This document shows positions 52,533 to 63,531 of a stretch of 64,000 nt of DNA, piece by piece (positions within the stretch are counted from its first letter, which is position 1; each line of letters starts with the position of its first letter). This DNA comes from Vibrio penaeicida (GTDB lineage: Bacteria > Pseudomonadota > Gammaproteobacteria > Enterobacterales > Vibrionaceae). The DNA is taken from the NCBI RefSeq assembly GCF_019977755.1, contig NZ_AP025145.1, positions 1,116,001 through 1,180,000 of the forward strand. Reading direction: 5' to 3'. The notes beneath the pieces are model-generated. The model saw only the letters and a program-made list of their open reading frames with translations, was not told where the DNA came from and made no database searches. Made by a program: the position numbers and the translations under genes.

Positions 52533-53456
52533 ATGAGATTCATTTTGAAACGCTTTCTTTTCCTTTTGACACATTTTTGCTGCTTATCAACACTCTTGGT
52601 TCACTTCCCTGCTGTGAGCGCGGAGTATACATTTTCCACTTGGAACCTTGAGTGGTTAACCACTAATCCAAGTAAGCGAATTGAGCCTAGCCAAAGAGAA
52701 GCCAGCGACTTTAAAGCACTGAGCAAGGTCTTTAGTAAAGTACCTAATCCGTCTTTGCATATAATGTCATTTCAAGAAGTGGATTCAAAAGAAGCGCTAG
52801 AGCAAGTAACTGGGGATGGTTATCAATACTTTTTCTCGGAACGGTCTAGAAGTAAGCATCGAGATTTACAGTTTGAGGGTATTAATCAATACACTGGGTT
52901 TGCTGTATCAAAAGGCATCAATGTTCAAAACCCAGATGATATTAATTTGATGCCATCTCAGTTTAACAAGTTACGGTTTGCTACTTATATTGTTGTTGAT
53001 ATTCCGAAAAAGAAGCCTATTCACTTGTTATCAGTACATTTGAAATCGGGCTGCTTTGCTGCAAGAAAGAATACCAATTCCTGCCGAGCCTTAGCCAAAC
53101 AAGGCAAATCGCTTAATGGATGGATTAAAGAAAGACAAAAGAAAGGCCAATCTTATGCCATTTTGGGTGACTTTAACCACAACCTCGCCTATCCCAATGA
53201 TTGGTTGTGGCGTATATTAACGAAAAACACAAGTACGCAAGTTAGTCTGACAAGTAAAAACACCAGAGCAGAATGCCGCGTGAGATCTCGTTCTAATCCA
53301 ACAAAAACGCACCAGTATCGAAATCTAATTGATCATATAGTTTCGAGCCCTGATCTGCCGCTTAATCAGGCAAAACAAATCACCTTTACCAAACATGATG
53401 TCCTTAGCCATCGGCTCAGTGATCATTGCCCGCTGGTATCTACAGCCAAGCTGTAG
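52533..53456 (+). CDS. Secreted endonuclease/exonuclease/phosphatase (EEP) family protein
   Basis: 307 residues with a signal peptide (LLVHFPAVSA-EYTF). EEP motifs appear in order: STWNLEWL, SFQEVDS (metal Glu), LLSVHLKSGC, ILGDFNHN (Asp/Asn), LIDHIVSS and RLSDHCPLV (catalytic Asp-His). Cys pairs suggest disulfides in the exported enzyme. It could be an extracellular nuclease or a phosphodiesterase/phosphatase. It lies upstream of the organophosphorus block on the same strand, which fits phosphate or nucleotide scavenging, but the substrate is unknown. Confidence 0.85.
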   Translation: MRFILKRFLFLLTHFCCLSTLLVHFPAVSAEYTFSTWNLEWLTTNPSKRIEPSQREASDFKALSKVFSKVPNPSLHIMSFQEVDSKEALEQVTGDGYQYFFSERSRSKHRDLQFEGINQYTGFAVSKGINVQNPDDINLMPSQFNKLRFATYIVVDIPKKKPIHLLSVHLKSGCFAARKNTNSCRALAKQGKSLNGWIKERQKKGQSYAILGDFNHNLAYPNDWLWRILTKNTSTQVSLTSKNTRAECRVRSRSNPTKTHQYRNLIDHIVSSPDLPLNQAKQITFTKHDVLSHRLSDHCPLVSTAKL

Positions 53457-53573: not shown

Positions 53574-55451
53574 ATGAAAATACGATGGAAAGGTATGGGC
53601 GTGCGGTTGGCACTGGCAATGGCTATTTTGTCCTTAACCACGCTTATCGTATCTGGATTGTCCTCTTATACCTTTTTAGATATCAATACCCGACTAGAGC
53701 ATTTGAACAATAATGATCTCAAAGCGTTGGATTATGCCGCAAAATTAAATGATAAGGTTCGCCTGATCATTGCCACAGCACCACTCTTAGGAACAGCTGA
53801 TTCAAGCGTGTCACGCAACCATGCCATGGAAGAGATTAACCGCGCGATTGTTGAAATGAACCATGTTATGGCGCAATTCCCTGACTACCATAACTACTTT
53901 AAGAACATCATCACTCAAATCGGAAATAGCTTGAGTTTGCTTTATCAGAATGAAGCTCAATCGGATCAACTGACTTCTCAACTGAACTTTTTACTTGATG
54001 GATTGTTCCCACTATTGGAATTGGCAGGTGAGTCTCTCGATTCGTTATCCAGCTCTGAAAAGCAAGAAATTGAATATGCGCAGTTTCGGTCACTTATTTA
54101 TTACCAGTCTGGTCTTGCCGAAAAATTATATAACGATGCCAGCTTTAACGAGTTGGATGAAACCATCTTGCGATTGGAAGAGTTGGGAAATAGATGGTGG
54201 GTGGTATGGCAAGAAAGCTCCCTTCCCTCTCAGCACCCAAACTTAAATGAACAATTGATTGTTCTGCATAAATTAACTTCTCGAGGTGGCAGGCTCTTTG
54301 CGCTAAAAGATGAATTAATCGACAGACATTACCAAGCTCAATTCTTACTCGAGAACAGCAACACACATCTACACCAACTCGCTGTACAAATTGAGCGATA
54401 CACTGCCACTGTCAACTCCGACATTGATCGGTCGCTTAATTCGGCAAGACAATCATTGTCAGCTAATCAAAGGTTCGCTGTACTGCTTTCGCTAATCAGC
54501 ATAGCAACAGCCGTGGCTATATCTTGGTTTTATGTAAAGAAAAATATCTTACAAAGAATTCAGCAACTTCAACTTAATATGAAAGCCATTTCGAGTGGGC
54601 ATCTTGCAACACCTGTCGCGATTTCTGGTGGCGATGAAGTGACGGAAATGGCCAAAGACTTGCAAGTGTTCCAACAAACAGCGATTGAAGTTGAGCAAAC
54701 TAACAAGCGGCTTGAGCAAGAAGTCATCGAACGTGCTACCGCAGAAAAGAAACTTCGTTCAACGCAAGACGAATTGATACAAGCCGGCAAGTTAGCGGCG
54801 CTCGGAGAGTTAAGCGTTGGGATAACACATGAAATTAATCAACCTCTCACAGCCGTGAACAGCCATGTAAGAAGTGCGAAATTGTGGTTGGACAAAGATA
54901 ACCCTGAAAAAGCGATAACTAACTTAGATAAAATACAAAAGCTTCTATCCAAAACCGCTGCGATAACACGGCATCTTAGAGCGTTCGCAAGAAAAAGTGA
55001 TGGCCATATGGAATCGGTACACTTGGAACCGGTCATCAACGATGCCATTCAACTTTTAGAAAGCCGCTACCCCAATGACATTATCACTTTTGAGCCCGAC
55101 TCCCTTACGTACGTGTCTGCTAACACCATTCGCTTAGAACAAGTATTGGTTAATATTATTGGGAACGCGTTAGACGCGGTAGAAAAAGTCTCAGACCCGA
55201 CGATATCTATTGCCGTAACGACGATACAAAATCAAACAAACATTATCGTTTCAGATAACGGTACGGGGATAAACCAAGAAGAAATCGAACACATATTTGA
55301 CCCTTTTTATACCAACAAAGAATCGGGTAAAGGATTGGGGCTTGGCTTGTCTATCGCTTACAACATTATCAAAGACTTTGGTGGCTCTATTAGAGCGGAA
55401 TCCAAAGCTCAGGAAGGTACAACCTTCACCTTAACACTCAAAACGAACTAA
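53574..55451 (+). CDS. Sensor histidine kinase, DctB/TorS-like
   Basis: 625 residues. TM1 at about 10-32, an all-helical periplasmic sensor of about 265 residues like TorS-type four-helix bundles, TM2 at 301-320, HAMP (330-375), a coiled coil, then the DctB-type phosphoacceptor GELSVGITHEINQPLTAVNS (His419). The ATPase domain has NIIGNALDAVEK, SDNGTGINQEE, FDPFYTNKESGKGLGLGLSI. The sigma-54 regulator gene follows 12 bp later. The periplasmic ligand is unknown; neighbouring genes suggest a phosphodiester or phosphonate, or its binding protein. Confidence 0.92.
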   Translation: MKIRWKGMGVRLALAMAILSLTTLIVSGLSSYTFLDINTRLEHLNNNDLKALDYAAKLNDKVRLIIATAPLLGTADSSVSRNHAMEEINRAIVEMNHVMAQFPDYHNYFKNIITQIGNSLSLLYQNEAQSDQLTSQLNFLLDGLFPLLELAGESLDSLSSSEKQEIEYAQFRSLIYYQSGLAEKLYNDASFNELDETILRLEELGNRWWVVWQESSLPSQHPNLNEQLIVLHKLTSRGGRLFALKDELIDRHYQAQFLLENSNTHLHQLAVQIERYTATVNSDIDRSLNSARQSLSANQRFAVLLSLISIATAVAISWFYVKKNILQRIQQLQLNMKAISSGHLATPVAISGGDEVTEMAKDLQVFQQTAIEVEQTNKRLEQEVIERATAEKKLRSTQDELIQAGKLAALGELSVGITHEINQPLTAVNSHVRSAKLWLDKDNPEKAITNLDKIQKLLSKTAAITRHLRAFARKSDGHMESVHLEPVINDAIQLLESRYPNDIITFEPDSLTYVSANTIRLEQVLVNIIGNALDAVEKVSDPTISIAVTTIQNQTNIIVSDNGTGINQEEIEHIFDPFYTNKESGKGLGLGLSIAYNIIKDFGGSIRAESKAQEGTTFTLTLKTN

Positions 55452-55463
55452 ATAACTATTACA

Positions 55464-56816
55464 ATGAAACATTCAATTCTACTTATTGACGACGAACACG
55501 ATGTCGTCGACGCTGTCGGAGAAATGCTCGAACTTGAAGGGTTCGATGTTTCTACGTTTACTGAACCAGAAAAGGCACTCAAGCAGCTTAAGCCAGAAAG
55601 TAACCTAGCTGTTTTGTGCGACGTTAAAATGCCGTCCATCGATGGGTTGTGCCTATTAAGTGCTATTAATAACCGAGCTCCCGGAGTCCCAGTAATCTTA
55701 ATGAGTGGGCATGGTGATATCCCAATGGCTATAGAAGCCATGAAAAATGGAGCCTATGATTTCTTAGAGAAACCACTAGAGCCGGAACTGTTAACCGAAA
55801 AGTTAACAATGGCCTGTCAGACTCGGCTCATGCAGCTGGAAAAGCACCCTTTGCCCAGTAGTACCAGTATAGAAGACGTCATCATTGGTGACTCCAGCAA
55901 GATGGAGAAGATCCGCACTCAAGTCTTAGCTCTTGCTAAATCAAATGTAGACACCATCATCAACGGTGAAACTGGGACAGGTAAAGAAGTCATAGCCAGA
56001 GCCTTGCACCAGTTTAGTAAACGGAAGTCGAAACCCTTCGTCGCCATTAACTGTGGCGGAATGAGTGAAAGTATTATTGAAAGCGAGCTATTCGGGCATG
56101 AAGCGGGGGCATTCACAAGTGCGAATCGCAAACGAATAGGTAAGATTGAGCAAGCAAATGGAGGTACCCTATTTCTCGATGAAATTGAAACCATGCCCAT
56201 TGCCATACAGATAAAGTTACTTCGTATTATCCAAGAGCGTGTTATTGAACGAGTAGGCAGCAACGAGCTTATCAAGGTTAATATTACGATTATTGCAGCG
56301 AGCAAAGCAGACTTGTCGGCGCTAAGTGAGCAAGGACAATTTCGGAGCGACCTCTTTTATCGGTTAAATATAGCCAGTATTCATTTACCACCGCTTCGTG
56401 ATCGCAAAGAAGATCTGCAAAGTCTGTTTCGATTTTTTGTCCTTCAAGCGTGTGAAAAATACAGCACTCGTGCCCCTTCTCTGTATCAAGAGCATATTCA
56501 GCAATTACACAAACACACTTGGGTCGGTAATGTTCGCGAGCTAAAAAACGTGGCAGAACGTTTTGTACTTGGCATCGTAGGAGATGGATTTGATCTCGAA
56601 GCGCCTATTGAAGTAGATAAAACGGCTAAGACACTGGGTTTTGAGGAACAAATTGATCAGTACGAAAAGAATTTACTCATAACAGCACTTTCTGACAGTA
56701 GTGGAAACATTAATCAGGTATCAGAAACACTAAACCTTCCACGAAAAACTTTGTACCGGAAAATGAAAAAACATCAGTTAGACAAAGACAGTTTTAAAGT
56801 ATTGAAACGCTCATAA
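55464..56816 (+). CDS. Sigma-54-dependent response regulator (NtrC/DctD-like) with GAFTSA loop
   Basis: 450 residues. Receiver: DDE at 9-11, Asp53 in LCDVKMPSIDG, Lys in FLEKPLEP. AAA+ domain: Walker A GETGTGKE (Lys174), ELFGHEAGAFTSA (215-220), Walker B GGTLFLDEIE, and the Arg-finger region RSDLFYRLN. The C-terminal Fis-type HTH is NINQVSETLNLPRKTLYRKM. The loop that touches sigma-54 is normally GAFTGA; here the second Gly is Ser (codons at 56106-56123). The gene is 12 bp after the kinase. Two sigma-54 promoters with a shared upstream motif lie just downstream and are its likely targets. Confidence 0.93.
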   Translation: MKHSILLIDDEHDVVDAVGEMLELEGFDVSTFTEPEKALKQLKPESNLAVLCDVKMPSIDGLCLLSAINNRAPGVPVILMSGHGDIPMAIEAMKNGAYDFLEKPLEPELLTEKLTMACQTRLMQLEKHPLPSSTSIEDVIIGDSSKMEKIRTQVLALAKSNVDTIINGETGTGKEVIARALHQFSKRKSKPFVAINCGGMSESIIESELFGHEAGAFTSANRKRIGKIEQANGGTLFLDEIETMPIAIQIKLLRIIQERVIERVGSNELIKVNITIIAASKADLSALSEQGQFRSDLFYRLNIASIHLPPLRDRKEDLQSLFRFFVLQACEKYSTRAPSLYQEHIQQLHKHTWVGNVRELKNVAERFVLGIVGDGFDLEAPIEVDKTAKTLGFEEQIDQYEKNLLITALSDSSGNINQVSETLNLPRKTLYRKMKKHQLDKDSFKVLKRS

Positions 56817-56898: not shown

Positions 56899-56982
56899 GA
56901 AGGACAAAAATGACTCATAATCAAAACCTCAAATCTTATCTTATTGTTTTTATTGAGTATAATAATTGGCATGTAGCATGCA
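56899..56982 (+). promoter_or_regulatory. Sigma-54 promoter with upstream activator-like site, before the phosphodiesterase gene
   Basis: TGGCAT-N5-ATGCA (56967-56982) has GG at -24 and GC at -12 with correct spacing. About 50 bp upstream, 56899-56918 begins GAAGGACA and ends TGACTCAT; 16 of its 20 bases match 58333-58352, upstream of the second sigma-54 promoter. The predicted start site is near 56993, giving a leader of about 38 bases. Confidence 0.7.
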
Positions 56983-57030
56983 ATTCTCCTTTTGCACATT
57001 AAAGTGCATTCTATAAAATGGAGAAATAAC

Positions 57031-58242
57031 ATGAAACAAACACTTGTGGGTACGACGCTCATTTGCCTAGGGCTAACGTCAGGGATTGCCTTCGCTAATG
57101 TTTCGGCAGATTTGGGTCCCCGCCCTATGTATCTTGTCGACAACATGGACGAAAGCGCACTAAAAACTAAGCTTCAAGCTTGTGAAGCCGGTCCTTTTCA
57201 TCGAAGCGATTTTTCCATCGGTCACCGCGGTGCAGCAATGCAGTTTCCTGAACACACCAAAGAATCTTACTTAGCGGCAATTCGCACAGGCGCTGGGGTA
57301 CTCGAGTGTGACGTTACTTTCACGAAAGACAAAGAACTAGTGTGTCGTCATTCGCAAAGCGATCTGCATACAACAACCAATGTACTCGCCATTCCTGAGC
57401 TTGCAAAAAAATGTACTGTTCCTTTCAAGCCCGCCAATTTGGAAACGGGAGAAAAAGCGCAAGCTGAATGTCGCACGTCTGACTTTACTTTGGCGGAATT
57501 TAAAACGCTTAAAGGAAAAATGGATGGAGCTAACCCAATGGCTCAAACACCTGAAGAATACATGAATGGAACACCTGGATGGCGAACCGATCTCTATTCT
57601 ACGTCGGGAACGTTAATGACTCATGCAGAAAGCGTCGCTTTGTTTAAAGAACATGGTGTAAAAGTTACTCCAGAGCTTAAGTCCCCTGCTGTTGATATGC
57701 CTTACAACGGTTTTTCGCAAGAAGATTATGCGCAAAAACTGATTGACGAACTAAAAGCTGGCGGGATTAAAGCGAAGGATGCCTACGTACAATCGTTTAA
57801 CTTGAACGATGTAAAATACTGGATAGCAAAAGAGCCTAAGTTTGGTCAGCAAGCTGTTTACTTAGACGATCGAGTCTACAACGACGAGAACTTTAAACCC
57901 ACACTAGATAATATGAAATCCTTAGCAGAATCAGGCGTTAACATTATTGCACCACCTATGTACGCCTTGGTTACTTTGGACAGTAAAGGAAGCATTGTGC
58001 CTTCAGATTATGCCAAGCTAGCGAAAGAAGCTGGTCTTGATATTATCACGTGGACGTTAGAGCGCTCTGGACCACTAAACAACGGTGGTGGTTGGTATTA
58101 TCAAAGTGTTAAAGACAGCATCAATAACGATGGTGATGCCATGGTGATGTTAGATGCTTTGGCACAAAAAGTAGGTGTTTTAGGTGTATTCAGTGATTGG
58201 CCTTCAACCGCTACTTATTACGCTAACTGCATGAAACTATAG
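57031..58242 (+). CDS. Periplasmic glycerophosphodiester phosphodiesterase
   Basis: 403 residues from ATG 57031 (GGAG upstream). A signal peptide ends [12 protein letters not shown] core: [20 protein letters not shown] (first catalytic His), [18 protein letters not shown] (metal Glu/Asp and second His), [10 protein letters not shown] and [11 protein letters not shown]. It cleaves glycerophosphodiesters to glycerol-3-phosphate and an alcohol. At about 400 residues it resembles GlpQ-type periplasmic enzymes with inserts rather than cytoplasmic UgpQ. The sigma-54 promoter just upstream sets it apart from Pho- or GlpR-controlled homologues. Confidence 0.9.
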
Positions 58243-58256
58243 TAGATAGGTTAATA

Positions 58257-58288
58257 AAAGAGTCGCTAAAATGCGGCTCTTTCTTTTT
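58257..58288 (+). terminator. Terminator after the phosphodiesterase gene
   Basis: Stem AAAGAGTCGC / GCGGCTCTTT (one G-T pair) followed by CTTTTTC. Confidence 0.8.
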
Positions 58289-58303
58289 CACAGAAACGGT
58301 TTG

Positions 58304-58427
58304 GACACATTTGACCCAAACGATGGAAAAACGAAGGACAGATGTGACACATTTGTAAAATAAAAACAAATCCGACTTTCTATCTATCTGTTTATATTGA
58401 ATTATTTAACATGGCACACTCTTAGCA
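58304..58427 (+). promoter_or_regulatory. Sigma-54 promoter with repeated activator-like sites, before phnD
   Basis: TGGCAC-N5-TAGCA (58412-58427) fits the -24/-12 consensus with one mismatch. GACACATTTG occurs twice as a direct repeat (58304-58313 and 58346-58355), 42 bp or four helical turns apart. The second copy lies inside GAAGGACA...TGACACAT (58333-58352), which matches the site upstream of the phosphodiesterase promoter, and includes the palindrome ATGTGACACAT. Confidence 0.75.
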
Positions 58428-58473: not shown

Positions 58474-59514
58474 ATGAAATTAGCACCTAAAGGATTACTT
58501 ATTGCTACCTCCCTGCTTTTGCCTTCATTAGCATTTGCGCAGACGTGTGAAAACAGAGGTGTATTGGACGACAGGTATTGTGATGAAAACAATGATCTTG
58601 TTGCTGACACACCAAAAAACAAAGACGACTGGCGCGACCCAAGTACATTGGTCTTTACATATACTCCTGTTGAAGACCCAGCTATATACAAAGATGCGTT
58701 CGCCGACTTTCAGGCACACTTAACTAAAATTACTGGCAAGCGAGTCATTTACTACACAGTGCACTCAAACTCCGCACAAGTTGAAGCCATGCGTTCAGGA
58801 AGACTGCACGTTGCTGGATTCTCAACAGGTCCAACAGGCTATGCTGTAAACCTTGCGGGTTACGTGCCTATTGCTGTAAAAGGCAACGAAAATGGTTTCC
58901 AAGGCTATAACTTAGTTACGATCGTTCGAAAAGATAGCGGCATCAACACCATGGACGATTTGAAAGGCAAACGTGTTGCCCACACATCAGCTTCATCAAA
59001 CTCTGGTAACCTAGCGCCAAGAGCTCTCTTTCCAAACAAAGGGATAGTTCCAGACAAAGATTATAAAGTTCTTTACTCTGGCAAACACGATCAATCTATT
59101 CTTGGCGTATTTAATGGCGACTACGACGCTGCACCCGTCGCATCAGATGTTTACGACCGAATGGTCGCAGCAGGTCGAGTCGACGAAAGTGCACTTAAGA
59201 TTATTTATCGCAGCCCTAGATTCCCAACCTCTGCTTTTGGCTACTCTCATGATCTCAATCCTGAATTAGTCGAAAAAATCAAAGAAGCGTTTTCGACTTA
59301 TCGCTTTACGCCAGAAATGAGCGCGACTTTCAAAGGAGCCGATCGCTTTGCTCCTATTACTTACAAAGAAGATTGGGCGGTAATCCGAAACATCGCACAC
59401 GCTACTGGGACTGCTTACACCAAAACAGGGCTTAAAAAGCTCGCAGAAAAAGAAGCCGCTAAACGAGCTAAGAAGAAAGCGGCGGAACTCGCTAAACAAG
59501 CCAAAAATCAGTAA
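58474..59514 (+). CDS. phnD: Phosphate/phosphite/phosphonate-type ABC substrate-binding protein
   Basis: 346 residues with a signal peptide (LLPSLAFA-QTCE). An N-terminal Cys-containing Asp-rich segment (CENRGVLDDRYCDENNDLVA) precedes the periplasmic-binding fold: LVFTYTPVEDPAIYKDAF, GKRVIYYTVHSNSAQVEAMRSGRLHVAGFSTGP, KGKRVAHTSASSNSGNLAPRALF and DYDAAPVASDVYDRM. The SASSNSGN segment is the anion-binding loop of PhnD proteins. It ends in an Ala/Lys-rich tail of about 25 residues (EKEAAKRAKKKAAELAKQ) that is unusual. Phosphonate, phosphite and phosphate-ester ligands cannot be told apart by eye. Confidence 0.88.
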   Translation: MKLAPKGLLIATSLLLPSLAFAQTCENRGVLDDRYCDENNDLVADTPKNKDDWRDPSTLVFTYTPVEDPAIYKDAFADFQAHLTKITGKRVIYYTVHSNSAQVEAMRSGRLHVAGFSTGPTGYAVNLAGYVPIAVKGNENGFQGYNLVTIVRKDSGINTMDDLKGKRVAHTSASSNSGNLAPRALFPNKGIVPDKDYKVLYSGKHDQSILGVFNGDYDAAPVASDVYDRMVAAGRVDESALKIIYRSPRFPTSAFGYSHDLNPELVEKIKEAFSTYRFTPEMSATFKGADRFAPITYKEDWAVIRNIAHATGTAYTKTGLKKLAEKEAAKRAKKKAAELAKQAKNQ

Positions 59515-59624: not shown

Positions 59625-60395
59625 ATGACAAGTACTCGTCCTCGTGGCATTGCCATCAATCAACTACAGCATTCTTACGTCCCAGGAAAACCGATTCTTA
59701 AAGGTATAGATGTCGACATTCAGGAGCCAGGTATCGTTGCGATCATAGGTCCTTCTGGTACAGGTAAAAGTACTCTTCTACGCTGCATTAACCGGCTAAA
59801 CGATCCTACATCGGGTGAAATTCTTTTTAATGGCGAAGACTTAACGAAATTACAAGGTACACCACTCCGTATGTTACGCCGTCACATAGGTATGGTATTT
59901 CAGGAATACAATCTGGTTGAACGGTTAACGGTGATTGAAAATGTGCTCACTGGTCGACTGGGATACATGAGCGCTTGGAATGCATGGCGTCGTAACTATT
60001 CACAAGAAGACATCAATAAAGCATTTGAGCTACTCAACTTTGTGGGCTTATCTGATTTCGCCAACCAAAGAGCCGATAGCTTGTCTGGTGGTCAAAGACA
60101 ACGTGTAGGAATTGCACGCGCTGTTATGCAAGACCCTTACATTCTTCTAGCAGACGAACCGACCTCTTCCCTCGACCCTAAAACCGCAGTCGAGATTATG
60201 GAACTGATGGAACAGCTGGCAGAAAAGAACCAGATCCCAGTGTTAGTTAACATTCATGACGTTAACCTAGCTAAACGTTATGCAAAGCGAATCATTGGTA
60301 TGTGTGGCGGTTCAGTTCATTATGACGGGCACCCTGATGGTATTACCGAAGACGATCTCAAGGTTATCTACGGAGGTGAATCATGGCTGGATTAA
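59625..60395 (+). CDS. phnC: Phosphonate-type ABC transporter ATP-binding protein
   Basis: 256 residues with intact Walker A ([11 protein letters not shown]), Q-loop ([12 protein letters not shown]), signature ([17 protein letters not shown]), Walker B ([12 protein letters not shown]) and switch His ([11 protein letters not shown]). The sequence [21 protein letters not shown] is typical of PhnC. It overlaps the next permease gene by 13 bp. Confidence 0.94.
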
Positions 60396-61168
60396 CCGCC
60401 AATCAACAAAACCCATTCAAAGCTCACTGGTCTAACAAGCTCATTTGGGTCGGTGTCGTTGCGTATTTGGCTTACAGTTTCTCGTCATTAGGGCTAAGCC
60501 TTGACCGGATTATAATCGGTATTGGAGAAAGTGAGCGTCTCCTTTCTCGTATGTTTCCGCCAGATTTCTCTAGAAGCAATTTGCTCCTTGATGGGCTTGC
60601 AGAAAGCCTGCAAATAGCGATCATCTCGAGCTTTTTCGGCATTGTTATATCACTGGTTTTAGGGTTACTTGCAGCTCGAAATATGATGCCTCTTATTGTC
60701 AATACACCTGTGCGTGGGCTCATTGCTCTTTGTCGTTCGTTTCACCCAGTGATCATCGCAATCCTGTTTGTTAAAGCTGTGGGTTTTGGGGCACTAGCAG
60801 GGATCCTAACTCTCGTTGTTGCTTCCATCGGGTTTATTGCAAAGCTTTTTGCTGAAGCGATAGAGGAAATTTCTTTCAAACAAGTTGAAGCGATTCGAGC
60901 AACAGGCGCCAGTTTTATCAGCGTTGTCTTGTTCGCCGTAATGCCTCAAGTGTTTTCTCGATTTATCGGATTTTCAAGCTATCAATTGGACTCAAATCTA
61001 CGTAACTCGACGATGGTCGGAATTGTAGGTGCTGGTGGTCTTGGTGGCACTCTCTTTTCTGCATTCCAAAGATTCGATTATGACTTTGTTGCAGCGATCC
61101 TAATTACTATCATTACCTTGATTTTAATTGGCGAATTCTTATCTAACATCGTTCGGAGGATTTTCTGA
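60383..61168 (+). CDS. phnE: Phosphonate-type ABC transporter permease, first
   Basis: 261 residues with about six membrane helices and the PhnE coupling region [40 protein letters not shown]. Its start lies inside the end of phnC and its stop overlaps the next start (TGATG), so translation is coupled throughout. The two permeases form a heterodimer channel. Confidence 0.93.
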
Positions 61169-61971
61169 TGACGACTACAAATATTGATCATCACTGGGAA
61201 CGATTTACGACATCAGAAAAACTGATGCGATATGCCGCTTACTTTTGTTTCGTTATGGCGCTGGTTTGGTCTTGGCAGACCGTTGAAGTTATTCCTGAGT
61301 TTTTATACGACGCTCCCGCCCAGTTTGCCGATATGTTTAAGCGGATGGTTCCACTTGAATATGGTTTTTACCCAGAGAGTGTTCATGAAGCGCTTATTGA
61401 GACATTGCATATCGCGACACTGGGTACATTGTTTACACTAATTTTCGCCGTGCCATTAGCATTGTTAAATGCTCCTAACATTACACCGTACAAAACCATC
61501 AACTGGATTGCGCAGTTCTTTCTAGTATCATCCCGCTCCATCAACTCTTTGGTTTGGGCGTTGTTATTTATCGCGTTCTTTGGTCCCGGAGTTATTGCAG
61601 GCATCATGGCGATTGCAATTCGAAGCATCGGATTCGTTGGTAAGTTGCTTGCAGAGGCGATTACCGAAGTCAACATGGGCACAATTGAAGCGCTAAGAGC
61701 GACAGGTGCTTCAACAGCAAGCATTTTGATTAAAGGATACTGGCCTCAAATTATGCCCGCGTTTTATTCCATTGTACTTTTCCGTTGGGATATTAATGTA
61801 CGCGAATCAGCAGTTCTGGGTTTGGTTGGTGCTGGTGGTGTTGGTGTACTTCTAAGTGACGCAATGAACCTGTTTGAATGGCAAAAAGTTTCTGTGATTC
61901 TATTGAGTATCTTTGTGGTTGTCTTATTAGCAGAAGCGTTGGTGATTCAAATCCGTAAGAAACTGATTTAA
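61168..61971 (+). CDS. phnE: Phosphonate-type ABC transporter permease, second
   Basis: 267 residues, again PhnE-like: LLAEAITEVNMGTIEALRATGASTASILIKGYWPQIMPAFYSI and GLVGAGGVGVLLSDAMN. It is related to but distinct from the first permease, the usual two-gene arrangement in marine gamma-proteobacteria. It is the last gene of the operon and ends before a strong terminator. Confidence 0.93.
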   Translation: MTTTNIDHHWERFTTSEKLMRYAAYFCFVMALVWSWQTVEVIPEFLYDAPAQFADMFKRMVPLEYGFYPESVHEALIETLHIATLGTLFTLIFAVPLALLNAPNITPYKTINWIAQFFLVSSRSINSLVWALLFIAFFGPGVIAGIMAIAIRSIGFVGKLLAEAITEVNMGTIEALRATGASTASILIKGYWPQIMPAFYSIVLFRWDINVRESAVLGLVGAGGVGVLLSDAMNLFEWQKVSVILLSIFVVVLLAEALVIQIRKKLI

Positions 61972-62070: not shown

Positions 62071-63531
62071 TTAAATCGGTTTAGACACTCCAGCAACAAG
62101 TGCTAACTCTTCTGGGTAATCTCTTTGTATTGCAAGCTCTACCGCCCTTCCGACAACGTCTGATTCTTGGATGCCATTTAAAAATTCATAGGATTGAAAA
62201 CGCTGTTTGTCTGAAATCATCTGATGCGAGTGCATGTGTGCGGCTATCTGGTCCGATGCTTCTATCGCCGATGAAGCCTTCACAATTTCCATGCGCGCAT
62301 AGTTAGTCCCTTCAACCGAAATATCAGACGCTCTTAAAGTAAAATCTTCACCTGGTATTTGCTGTGCACCATATAAAGGTTTGCTCGCCATTTCCGCACT
62401 AGAAAAAGAGGGAATAAATTGAGCAATATGCTCGATTGCGCGATTAGTACGCGTCATTTGTTCTGACTCTGACCACCCAGCTTCTATCTTAGAAAGCAAG
62501 TAGTTGGGTAATGCTGGCTGAGAGCTTTTGTCATTGCTTGTGACTAGCCCATCATGAAATAGCGTAATGTCTTCCGTCATCCCGTGTAGCTGAAAAACGC
62601 CGTCCGCATAAGGGGTTAGCTGTGCCATTCCGTTTGGAGTACCTCTTTGCCCGTGAAATATAACTTCAGGCCACTGCTGATCGCAATCTTCCCAGCGCGT
62701 AACATAAGCGGCTTTAAATTCCACGAACCTTTGCTTTGGGCGTTGTGTCCAGTCGTCGACCATACCCGTTTCAAAGCCACCTGCATTAATGAGGTAATCT
62801 ACCTGAGTATATTGGGTAGTTTCTTCGCTTAATCGAGAATGAGAGACACACCATCCACCATTGCTTTTCTCAACCTTTTCAACCTTAGTCTCCATGCGCA
62901 AATCGCAATTGATTTTGCTTGCTAACGCCAAGTCGAGTGTCGAAGAAAGCCTGAAAACACTCCAACCAAATTCCTGCACGGCGACAACTGGGTACTTAAT
63001 ATTGTCTAGGTTGGTATGCCGAGCAAAAGGAATCATCCAATCATCAAATGTAGCAGGCGTCTCTGGCTGCGTTTTCTCACGTAGCGCCGTTAGCTGCTCT
63101 TTTTCATACGTTACGTAATAGTTTTGAGGATCCCCCAAAACAGCATTCGACTCATCAACATCTACTAATGATTGGTAGTAGTTCTGAAGAAAATCAAGGC
63201 GTGGGAGAATCTCATCTGCGTTTCCTTCATCTGTGGTCGGCGTAACGATTACTGTGGGTCTGATGTTGATAGTATGAGGAAATAGCTTCACAGTATCGAT
63301 AGATTGACGAAGCAATTTCGCGCATTGTTTCTCGGAGATTTCACGGTACAAGTTACCACCGGCATGAAGGTGGCAGATAGGTGGACCATTAACTAAGCTG
63401 TCGCGTTTTTCAAACAGAGTTACATCTAAACCTAGCTCTGAAAACTTGAGGGCGGCAGTAGAACCTGCAATGCCACCACCAATGATTCCAACACTTAATG
63501 TCTTCTGCTCTTTATTTTTTATGAGGGTCAT
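62071..63531 (-). CDS. FAD-dependent oxidoreductase, substrate unknown
   Basis: 486 residues. N-terminal dinucleotide fold VGIIGGGIAGSTAALKFSELGLDVTLFEKR and the second FAD motif YLINAGGFETGMVDDW place it in the DAO/GMC-like superfamily. No close named enzyme is recognised. It converges on the phn operon with a shared terminator and is transcribed from its own promoter (TAAAAT at 63562-63567, minus) beside a 12-bp palindrome. Its nearness to phosphonate-type transport is suggestive, but it lacks the sigma-54 promoter, so joint function is only a guess. Confidence 0.8.
   Translation of the reverse strand: MTLIKNKEQKTLSVGIIGGGIAGSTAALKFSELGLDVTLFEKRDSLVNGPPICHLHAGGNLYREISEKQCAKLLRQSIDTVKLFPHTINIRPTVIVTPTTDEGNADEILPRLDFLQNYYQSLVDVDESNAVLGDPQNYYVTYEKEQLTALREKTQPETPATFDDWMIPFARHTNLDNIKYPVVAVQEFGWSVFRLSSTLDLALASKINCDLRMETKVEKVEKSNGGWCVSHSRLSEETTQYTQVDYLINAGGFETGMVDDWTQRPKQRFVEFKAAYVTRWEDCDQQWPEVIFHGQRGTPNGMAQLTPYADGVFQLHGMTEDITLFHDGLVTSNDKSSQPALPNYLLSKIEAGWSESEQMTRTNRAIEHIAQFIPSFSSAEMASKPLYGAQQIPGEDFTLRASDISVEGTNYARMEIVKASSAIEASDQIAAHMHSHQMISDKQRFQSYEFLNGIQESDVVGRAVELAIQRDYPEELALVAGVSKPI

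What the first reader, a model, noticed from the sequence alone, without database searches (positions are those of the whole stretch)
56899..58427. Two sigma-54 promoters with a shared upstream motif next to a DctB/DctD-like pair define a probable organophosphorus regulon
TGGCAT-N5-ATGCA precedes the periplasmic GDPD gene and TGGCAC-N5-TAGCA precedes phnD. Upstream of each is a near-identical 20-bp site (GAAGGACA...TGACNCAT; 16/20 identical), and the phnD promoter has an extra GACACATTTG copy four helical turns away. The kinase and sigma-54 activator genes lie directly upstream. Control of glycerophosphodiester hydrolysis and PhnCDE uptake by substrate-sensing sigma-54 activation, rather than by PhoB, is not something I know as described.
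Basis: partly seen in the sequence, partly recalled or inferred. Interest (0 to 1): 0.78.

Follow-up and report, generated by a model that had tools for sequence, protein, structure and literature searches.

The report
Sigma-54 switch for glycerol-phosphate scavenging
A marine Vibrio carries a sensor-and-activator pair that appears to switch on, through two matched promoters, an enzyme and a transporter that probably scavenge glycerol phosphate from phospholipid debris, although the transporter is usually labelled a phosphonate importer.

Summary
Both sigma-54 promoters exist, and the upstream site resolves to an imperfect dyad, RGACA-N4-TGACNCA. In 28 of 28 clusters compared (window plus 27 relatives), gdpd has one site and phnD two, at almost fixed distances. 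A site-plus-promoter pattern matches 60 of 227 Vibrio genomes, 59 of them exactly twice; the reversed control matches once in all. In 80 of 80 kinase loci (the best 80 of 506) the activator and the SBP gene follow the kinase.

The substrate reading is probably wrong. 'PhnD' is closest to GpxB, a glycerol-1/3-phosphate-binding protein (45% identical): 8 of 9 pocket residues are identical and the ninth is Thr to Ser. The genome's C-P lyase operon has its own PhnCDE. The kinase sensor model matches TorS, so the SBP may be a co-sensor; this is inferred.

Known analogues: Salmonella Pgt and AioXSR. Verdict: a real, conserved new variant of a known kind. It bears on GpxB regulation, which its authors leave open. 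No experiment exists, and phosphonate catabolism genes co-occur with the cluster, which weakens the substrate claim.

The parts
53574..55451 (+). Sensor histidine kinase, 625 aa: TorS-type all-helical sensor, HAMP, histidine/ATPase domains
55464..56816 (+). NtrC-type response regulator (receiver D53, sigma-54 AAA+ domain, Fis-type HTH; loop 1 reads GAFTSA)
   Evidence: Pfam Response_reg, Sigma54_activat and HTH_8; motifs
56902..56917 (+). Upstream activator site of gdpd, GGACA-N4-TGACTCA
   Evidence: a site is present at this promoter in 28 of 28 clusters
56967..56982 (+). Sigma-54 promoter of gdpd (-24/-12), 65 bp from the start of the upstream site
57031..58242 (+). Secreted (predicted by eye from its N-terminus) glycerophosphodiester phosphodiesterase, 403 aa
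   Evidence: Pfam PF03009, 86.5 bits
58303..58318 (+). Distal upstream activator site of the transporter operon (the real second copy)
   Evidence: 109 bp before the promoter in 28 of 28 clusters
58336..58351 (+). Proximal upstream activator site of the transporter operon
   Evidence: 75 bp before the promoter in the 27 relatives and 76 in the window
58412..58427 (+). Sigma-54 promoter of the transporter operon
58474..59514 (+). Periplasmic substrate-binding protein annotated PhnD, here read as GpxB-type (glycerol phosphate)
   Evidence: PDB best hit 9lf9 (GpxB), 269 bits (identity of entry); pocket residues T118 G119 Y145 S175 N176 S177 H205 R229 S253
59625..60395 (+). ABC transporter ATPase (PhnC family)
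   Evidence: NCBIfam TIGR02315, 315.8 bits, over cut-off
60383..61168 (+). ABC permease 1 (PhnE family)
   Evidence: TIGR01097, 260.7 bits, over cut-off
61168..61971 (+). ABC permease 2 (PhnE family)
   Evidence: TIGR01097, 273.2 bits, over cut-off

Best explanation
The seven genes are a self-contained, inducible scavenging system for glycerol phosphate and its diesters. The secreted GDPD cuts glycerophosphodiesters (deacylated phospholipid headgroups) into glycerol phosphate plus an alcohol. A GpxB-type binding protein captures glycerol phosphate and the PhnC/PhnE/PhnE-type ABC transporter imports it. The TorS-like sensor kinase detects the same ligand, probably through the loaded binding protein touching its helical periplasmic domain (as TorT is held to do on TorS, and as PgtC and AioX are described as doing with their kinases), and phosphorylates the NtrC-type regulator. 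The regulator binds GGACA-N4-TGaCC dyads, one before gdpd and two before the transporter operon, and drives sigma-54 promoters some 65-78 and 109 bp downstream. Shown by computation: gene content, promoters, sites, spacing, conservation, GpxB-type pocket, TorS-like fold of the model. Inferred: that this regulator binds these sites, the ligand, the co-sensing step, and induction.
Confidence: 0.62

Rival explanations
1. Same sigma-54 wiring, but the transporter and sensor are for phosphonates (for example 2-aminoethylphosphonate or methylphosphonate), as the annotation says; GDPD is co-regulated simply as another organophosphorus scavenging enzyme.
For: PhnC and PhnE models score over cut-off, and the SBP is over the cut-off of the broad phosphate/phosphite/phosphonate model TIGR01098 (193 bits, cut-off 112). 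The cluster co-occurs with C-P lyase (23 of 60 v 25 of 167, Fisher p 3.5e-4) and phosphonatase (49 of 60 v 76 of 167, p 9e-7).
Against: The SBP scores 140 bits against the PhnD equivalog cut-off of 261. Its pocket is GpxB-type, with Ser253 where the genome's own C-P lyase PhnD has Asp in a rough alignment. The own C-P lyase operon carries a separate PhnCDE and the own genome has no phosphonatase over cut-off. 3 of 60 cluster genomes have neither enzyme (counted by eye).
Confidence: 0.2
2. The kinase senses the ligand directly in its helical bundle (like McpS), and the SBP is only a transporter part.
Confidence: 0.4
3. The regulator recognises the dyads but the promoters are mainly switched by another signal (for example general phosphate or nitrogen stress through cross-talk), with the local kinase secondary.
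For: Sigma-54 regulators can be tied to nitrogen status (general knowledge). Nothing here measures induction.
Against: The composite pattern occurs twice, close together, in 59 of the 60 Vibrio genomes that have it, and the pair is adjacent in 80 of 80 kinase loci. No Pho box above chance in the window.
Confidence: 0.1

Closest known systems
Salmonella PgtB/PgtA/PgtC controlling the phosphoglycerate transporter PgtP
   Same: Kinase plus regulator controlling uptake of organic phosphate esters without PhoB (PMC11077982 and PMC10715179, passages seen); nearest NCBIfam kinase model
   Different: PgtP is an antiporter-type transporter, not ABC; a dedicated sensor PgtC, not seen here; kinase and regulator fall far below the PgtB/PgtA cut-offs (216 of 1000 and 321 of 650 bits)
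AioX-AioS-AioR (arsenite oxidase control)
   Same: Periplasmic binding protein, kinase and NtrC-type regulator at a sigma-54 promoter with two tandem palindrome-like upstream sites (PMC3834237, passages); ArrX, a relative of AioX (recalled), is a PDB hit of this SBP
   Different: AioX binds arsenite and is described as delivering that signal; here the SBP belongs to an ABC transporter operon
GpxB glycerol-1/3-phosphate transporter (PMC12718374)
   Same: SBP family, eight of nine pocket residues, phosphonate-type ABC transporter
   Different: Tail-contact Thr247 is Ser in 80 of 80 cluster SBPs; no kinase-regulator pair is mentioned in the main text ('two-component' 0 times), and its regulation is left to further work
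TorS-TorT
   Same: Fold of the sensor domain
   Different: TorS is a hybrid kinase/response regulator by its NCBIfam name; TorT is not of the GpxB family (recalled)
E. coli glpQ promoter
   Same: A GDPD gene listed with a sigma-54 promoter (PMC12316311, one passage)
   Different: Strongly non-consensus promoter; no link to a transporter or to this kinase pair is given in the passage
DctB/DctD
   Same: Kinase plus sigma-54 response regulator; some sources name relatives DctB
   Different: DctB is not among the 25 shown of 86 NCBIfam hits of the kinase; its sensor is PAS-type (recalled), not helical

Membership tests
Sigma-54 promoter with activator sites | -24/-12 element GG-N10-GC with TGGCA context, conserved in relatives | tested here: met
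   28 of 28 at both promoters; 35 of 35 and 35 of 35 in the kinase loci with gdpd before phnD
Sigma-54 promoter with activator sites | Dyad upstream at a set distance | tested here: met
   65, 75, 77 or 78 bp (gdpd) and 109 plus 75-76 bp (phnD) in 28 clusters
Sigma-54 promoter with activator sites | Transcription depends on rpoN and the regulator | not testable with these tools
   needs mutants
Sigma-54 activator (bEBP) | Receiver, AAA+ and Fis HTH domains | tested here: met
Sigma-54 activator (bEBP) | GAFTGA loop | tested here: inconclusive
   GAFTSA in the window; GSFTSA 36, GSFTGA 26, GAFTGA 13, GAFTSA 3, GSFTNA 3 of 81 sequences. Phe and Thr kept in all 81
GpxB | Phosphate-head residues T111 G112 Y138 S168 N169 S170 H199 | tested here: met
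   all seven identical in the window and 80 of 80
GpxB | Tail residues R223 and T247 | tested here: inconclusive
   R kept; T is S in 80 of 80 cluster SBPs and in the 120 listed of 7975 protein hits; T in 8 of 8 homologues without the regulator
GpxB | Micromolar binding of G1P and G3P | not testable with these tools
   needs protein
PhnD (phosphonate) equivalog | NCBIfam TIGR03431 cut-off 261 bits | tested here: not met
   140 bits
PgtB/PgtA | NCBIfam equivalog cut-offs 1000 and 650 bits | tested here: not met
   216 and 321 bits
PgtB/PgtA | pgtC sensor gene in the cluster | tested here: inconclusive
   no further gene of 100 aa or more lies on the coding strand between kinase and last permease; no pgtC model was searched in the rest of the genome
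TorS-type sensor domain | Two stacked four-helix bundles (PMC8534201, passage) | tested here: met
TorS-type sensor domain | Signal through a periplasmic binding protein | not testable with these tools
   needs interaction data
Pho regulon | PhoB box above chance | tested here: not met
   window: best 8 and 9 of 14 against shuffled means of 8.8 and 8.9; relatives reach 8-11, no shuffles run for them. Simple scan with a recalled consensus

The most novel reading that the evidence does not exclude
A single GpxB-type binding protein serves both as the substrate receptor of its own ABC transporter and as the ligand-loaded co-sensor of a TorS-type kinase, giving a three-part sigma-54 induction loop dedicated to glycerol phosphate from phospholipids (perhaps including archaeal G1P). 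It is shared by Vibrionales, Marinomonas-type bacteria, Halomonas and one enterobacterium (Budvicia), by age or by exchange, and GDPD genes were recruited into it several times, in Vibrionales with a copied promoter and site.
Probability: 0.33. Interest if true: 0.75.

Novelty: new variant of a known kind. Interest (0 to 1): 0.55.

Why it matters
GpxB was described in December 2025 as a route by which marine bacteria take up archaeal and bacterial glycerol phosphate, and its authors leave its regulation to further work. This cluster offers a concrete, testable answer for one branch of the family: a dedicated kinase, a sigma-54 activator, and a binding site that can be searched for and mutated. 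It also warns that 'phosphonate' PhnD annotations of this branch in marine gamma-proteobacteria may be glycerol-phosphate importers. The fixed spacing of promoter and sites makes the loop easy to test in a reporter strain.

Tried and rejected
Motif alone as a regulon predictor: rejected, because the relaxed core has 10 matches in the genome against 8 for the reversed control. Other members of the regulon in the own genome: none with the composite pattern. Autoregulation of the kinase by the same site: no exact site in 400 bp upstream in 80 of 80 loci, and a sigma-54-like element in 2.

PhoB control: no box above chance in the window. The lone gdpd paralogue as regulon member (L051): no site and no promoter in 320 bp upstream.

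Absence of phosphonate catabolism as proof against phosphonates: failed, since 57 of 60 cluster genomes have C-P lyase or phosphonatase; the association is in fact positive. The aromatic cap of phosphite and methylphosphonate proteins: the three such relatives printed have Tyr at the column of Ser253, but in the PtxB chain it counts as residue 203, not the paper's 208, so I did not prove that it is the cap and do not use it. The whole-kinase model against the PDB gave, in the 50 rows shown, kinase or response-regulator entries, so the sensor was modelled alone. The 4HB_MCP Pfam hint was below its cut-off (20.2 of 27 bits).

Literature: seven searches bear on this, in the open-licence library; by their listings I found no paper on this kinase-regulator pair, on its site, or on sigma-54 control of gdpd or phnD in Vibrio. 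Subscription journals are mostly not held. Two sigma-54 surveys (PMC3162934, PMC12316311) were seen as passages only; their main texts hold neither 'phosphonate' nor 'glycerophospho', but the second names an E. coli glpQ promoter.

Full report
WHAT WAS CLAIMED. Two sigma-54 promoters, one before a periplasmic GDPD gene and one before phnD, share a near-identical upstream site and lie beside a kinase and a sigma-54 activator.

THE OBSERVATION. It is correct at the stated coordinates. The gdpd promoter is TGGCATGTAGCATGCA at 56967-56982 and the phnD promoter TGGCACACTCTTAGCA at 58412-58427, both with GG-N10-GC spacing. The 20-bp sites match 16 of 20 and are the only two zero-mismatch matches to GAAGGACANNNNTGACNCAT in the 6.78 Mb genome. 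The core is RGACA-N4-TGACNCA, an imperfect dyad; in some stretches outside Vibrio (for example Marinomonas L187, Motiliproteus L185, Zobellella L201) it is the fuller palindrome GGACA-N4-TGTCCCA.

CONSERVATION IN VIBRIO AND NEAR RELATIVES. I searched 148 genomes, the own one included, for the GDPD and took 43 gdpd neighbourhoods: all 42 strong hits besides the window's (E 1e-119 or better) and one partial hit (two further regions there were near-matches of the motif). Weaker hits, to other GDPD families or short stretches, were not taken. 42 of 43 gave a gdpd hit at the script's thresholds. 27 hold the whole order kinase-regulator-gdpd-phnD-phnC-phnE-phnE; 15 hold gdpd without the rest. In the 27 plus the window, 28 of 28 have both promoters and all three sites. 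The phnD sites lie 109 and 75 bp before the promoter (window 109 and 76). The gdpd site lies 75, 77 or 78 bp before it, and 65 in the window, a difference of 10-13 bp, about one helical turn. None of the 15 lone gdpd genes has the site in 320 bp upstream; one has a sigma-54-like element.

GENOME-WIDE SPECIFICITY. The pattern site plus promoter (gap 45-75) was run over 227 Vibrio genomes. 60 match, 59 exactly twice and one once, 119 matches in all. The reversed pattern matched once. The two matches of a genome lie 0.6 to 3.1 kb apart. I mapped the genes only for the fetched clusters, so for the other genomes the context is inferred from spacing and sequence. The own genome has just the two matches described. 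The relaxed core alone is not informative (10 against 8 for the control).

BEYOND VIBRIO. A scan of named genomes with the kinase alignment found 506 relatives; the best 80 were kept. The window's genome is nearest Vibrio penaeicida (kinase 99% identical). In 80 of 80 the regulator and the SBP gene are with the kinase, and in 79 also phnC, phnE, phnE (L195 ends before them). The hosts include Vibrio, Photobacterium, Enterovibrio, Grimontia, Moritella, Psychromonas, Marinomonas, Marinobacterium, Nitrincola, Zobellella, Halomonas and Budvicia. GDPD is optional: the GDPD of the window's family lies before phnD in 36 (in one, L159, only the C-terminal part), after phnD in 2, a GlpQ-type GDPD lies before phnD in 3 (Zobellella), and none was found with these two queries in 39. 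The Zobellella protein scores 576 bits with NCBIfam NF008354 (cut-off 254), where the window's GDPD scores 56. Where gdpd lies between regulator and phnD, 35 of 35 and 35 of 35 intergenics have promoter plus site, and 34 of 35 phnD promoters have two strict sites. In the other 45 regulator-to-phnD stretches, 28 have a strict promoter, 20 a strict site, 18 both in range, and 27 both with loose patterns. Base-shuffled stretches never gave promoter plus site in 200 rounds. So the wiring is clear in Vibrionales and near relatives and, with simple patterns, partial farther out.

NEIGHBOURS. A gene family following phnE in 12 of 80 loci and one lying convergent in 20 of 80 were tested by one example each: histidine phosphatase PF00300 and HAD hydrolase PF08282. 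Phosphatases beside the importer fit a phosphate ester better than a phosphonate, but this is only suggestive.

RESULTS AGAINST. C-P lyase occurs in 23 of 60 cluster genomes and 25 of 167 others (p 3.5e-4); phosphonatase over cut-off in 49 of 60 and 76 of 167 (p 9e-7; cluster rows counted by eye). Shared ancestry is not corrected for. Phosphonate uptake is therefore not excluded by gene content. The regulator's loop 1 is GAFTSA in the window; a survey notes that single changes in GAFTGA, especially at Phe and Thr, mostly reduce or abolish activity (PMC3162934, passage). Phe and Thr are kept in all 81 sequences, and the sigma-54 promoters are maintained.

MECHANISM. Most likely: GDPD makes glycerol phosphate outside the inner membrane; the SBP binds it; the loaded SBP both feeds the ABC transporter and signals to the kinase; the phosphorylated regulator binds the dyads and activates both promoters. 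My estimates: wiring from regulator to promoters 0.9, glycerol phosphate as ligand about 0.65, SBP co-sensing about 0.45.

WHAT IS KNOWN. PgtA/PgtB/PgtC control PgtP for phosphoglycerate in Salmonella; [quoted passage not shown] AioX-AioS-AioR joins a periplasmic binding protein, kinase and NtrC-type regulator to a sigma-54 promoter with two palindromes (PMC3834237, passages). An E. coli glpQ promoter is listed among sigma-54 promoters that a survey's method missed (PMC12316311, passage). The present system is thus a new variant of a known kind. Its distinct points are the substrate class, an SBP that belongs to the regulated transporter, and a matched site given to a recruited GDPD gene.

Noticed in passing
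L051:9819-11027: A second full-length GDPD of the same family (73% identical) stands alone elsewhere on the same contig, without the site or promoter.
   Followed up: partly
window 56967-57030; relatives: From promoter start to gdpd start is 123-216 nt in the 27 relatives but only 64 nt in the window; a longer leader might carry its own control.
   Followed up: no
window 52533-53453: Endonuclease/exonuclease/phosphatase-family gene directly upstream of the kinase; found beside the cluster only in L135-L137 of the 80 kinase loci, the Vibrio penaeicida group.
   Followed up: no
window 62071-63531: FAD-dependent oxidoreductase convergent with the transporter operon; again only in L135-L137 of 80. 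20 of 80 loci have a HAD-type gene convergent instead.
   Followed up: no
window 56106-56123 (regulator loop 1): Sigma-54 contact loop reads GAFTSA; the 37 loci with gdpd mostly have GSFTSA (31), the other 43 loci mostly GSFTGA or GAFTGA (35) (the window was printed with the second group and is left out here).
   Followed up: partly
L159:13230-13940: Vibrio galatheae keeps the gdpd promoter and site although only the C-terminal part of gdpd was found.
   Followed up: no
L225:6547-15640: The own genome has a C-P lyase operon with its own PhnCDE on another contig.
   Followed up: partly
L150 upstream of phnD: Enterovibrio norvegicus shows no gdpd in the cluster but has an extra upstream site at -363, perhaps a relic of a lost gdpd promoter.
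   Followed up: no
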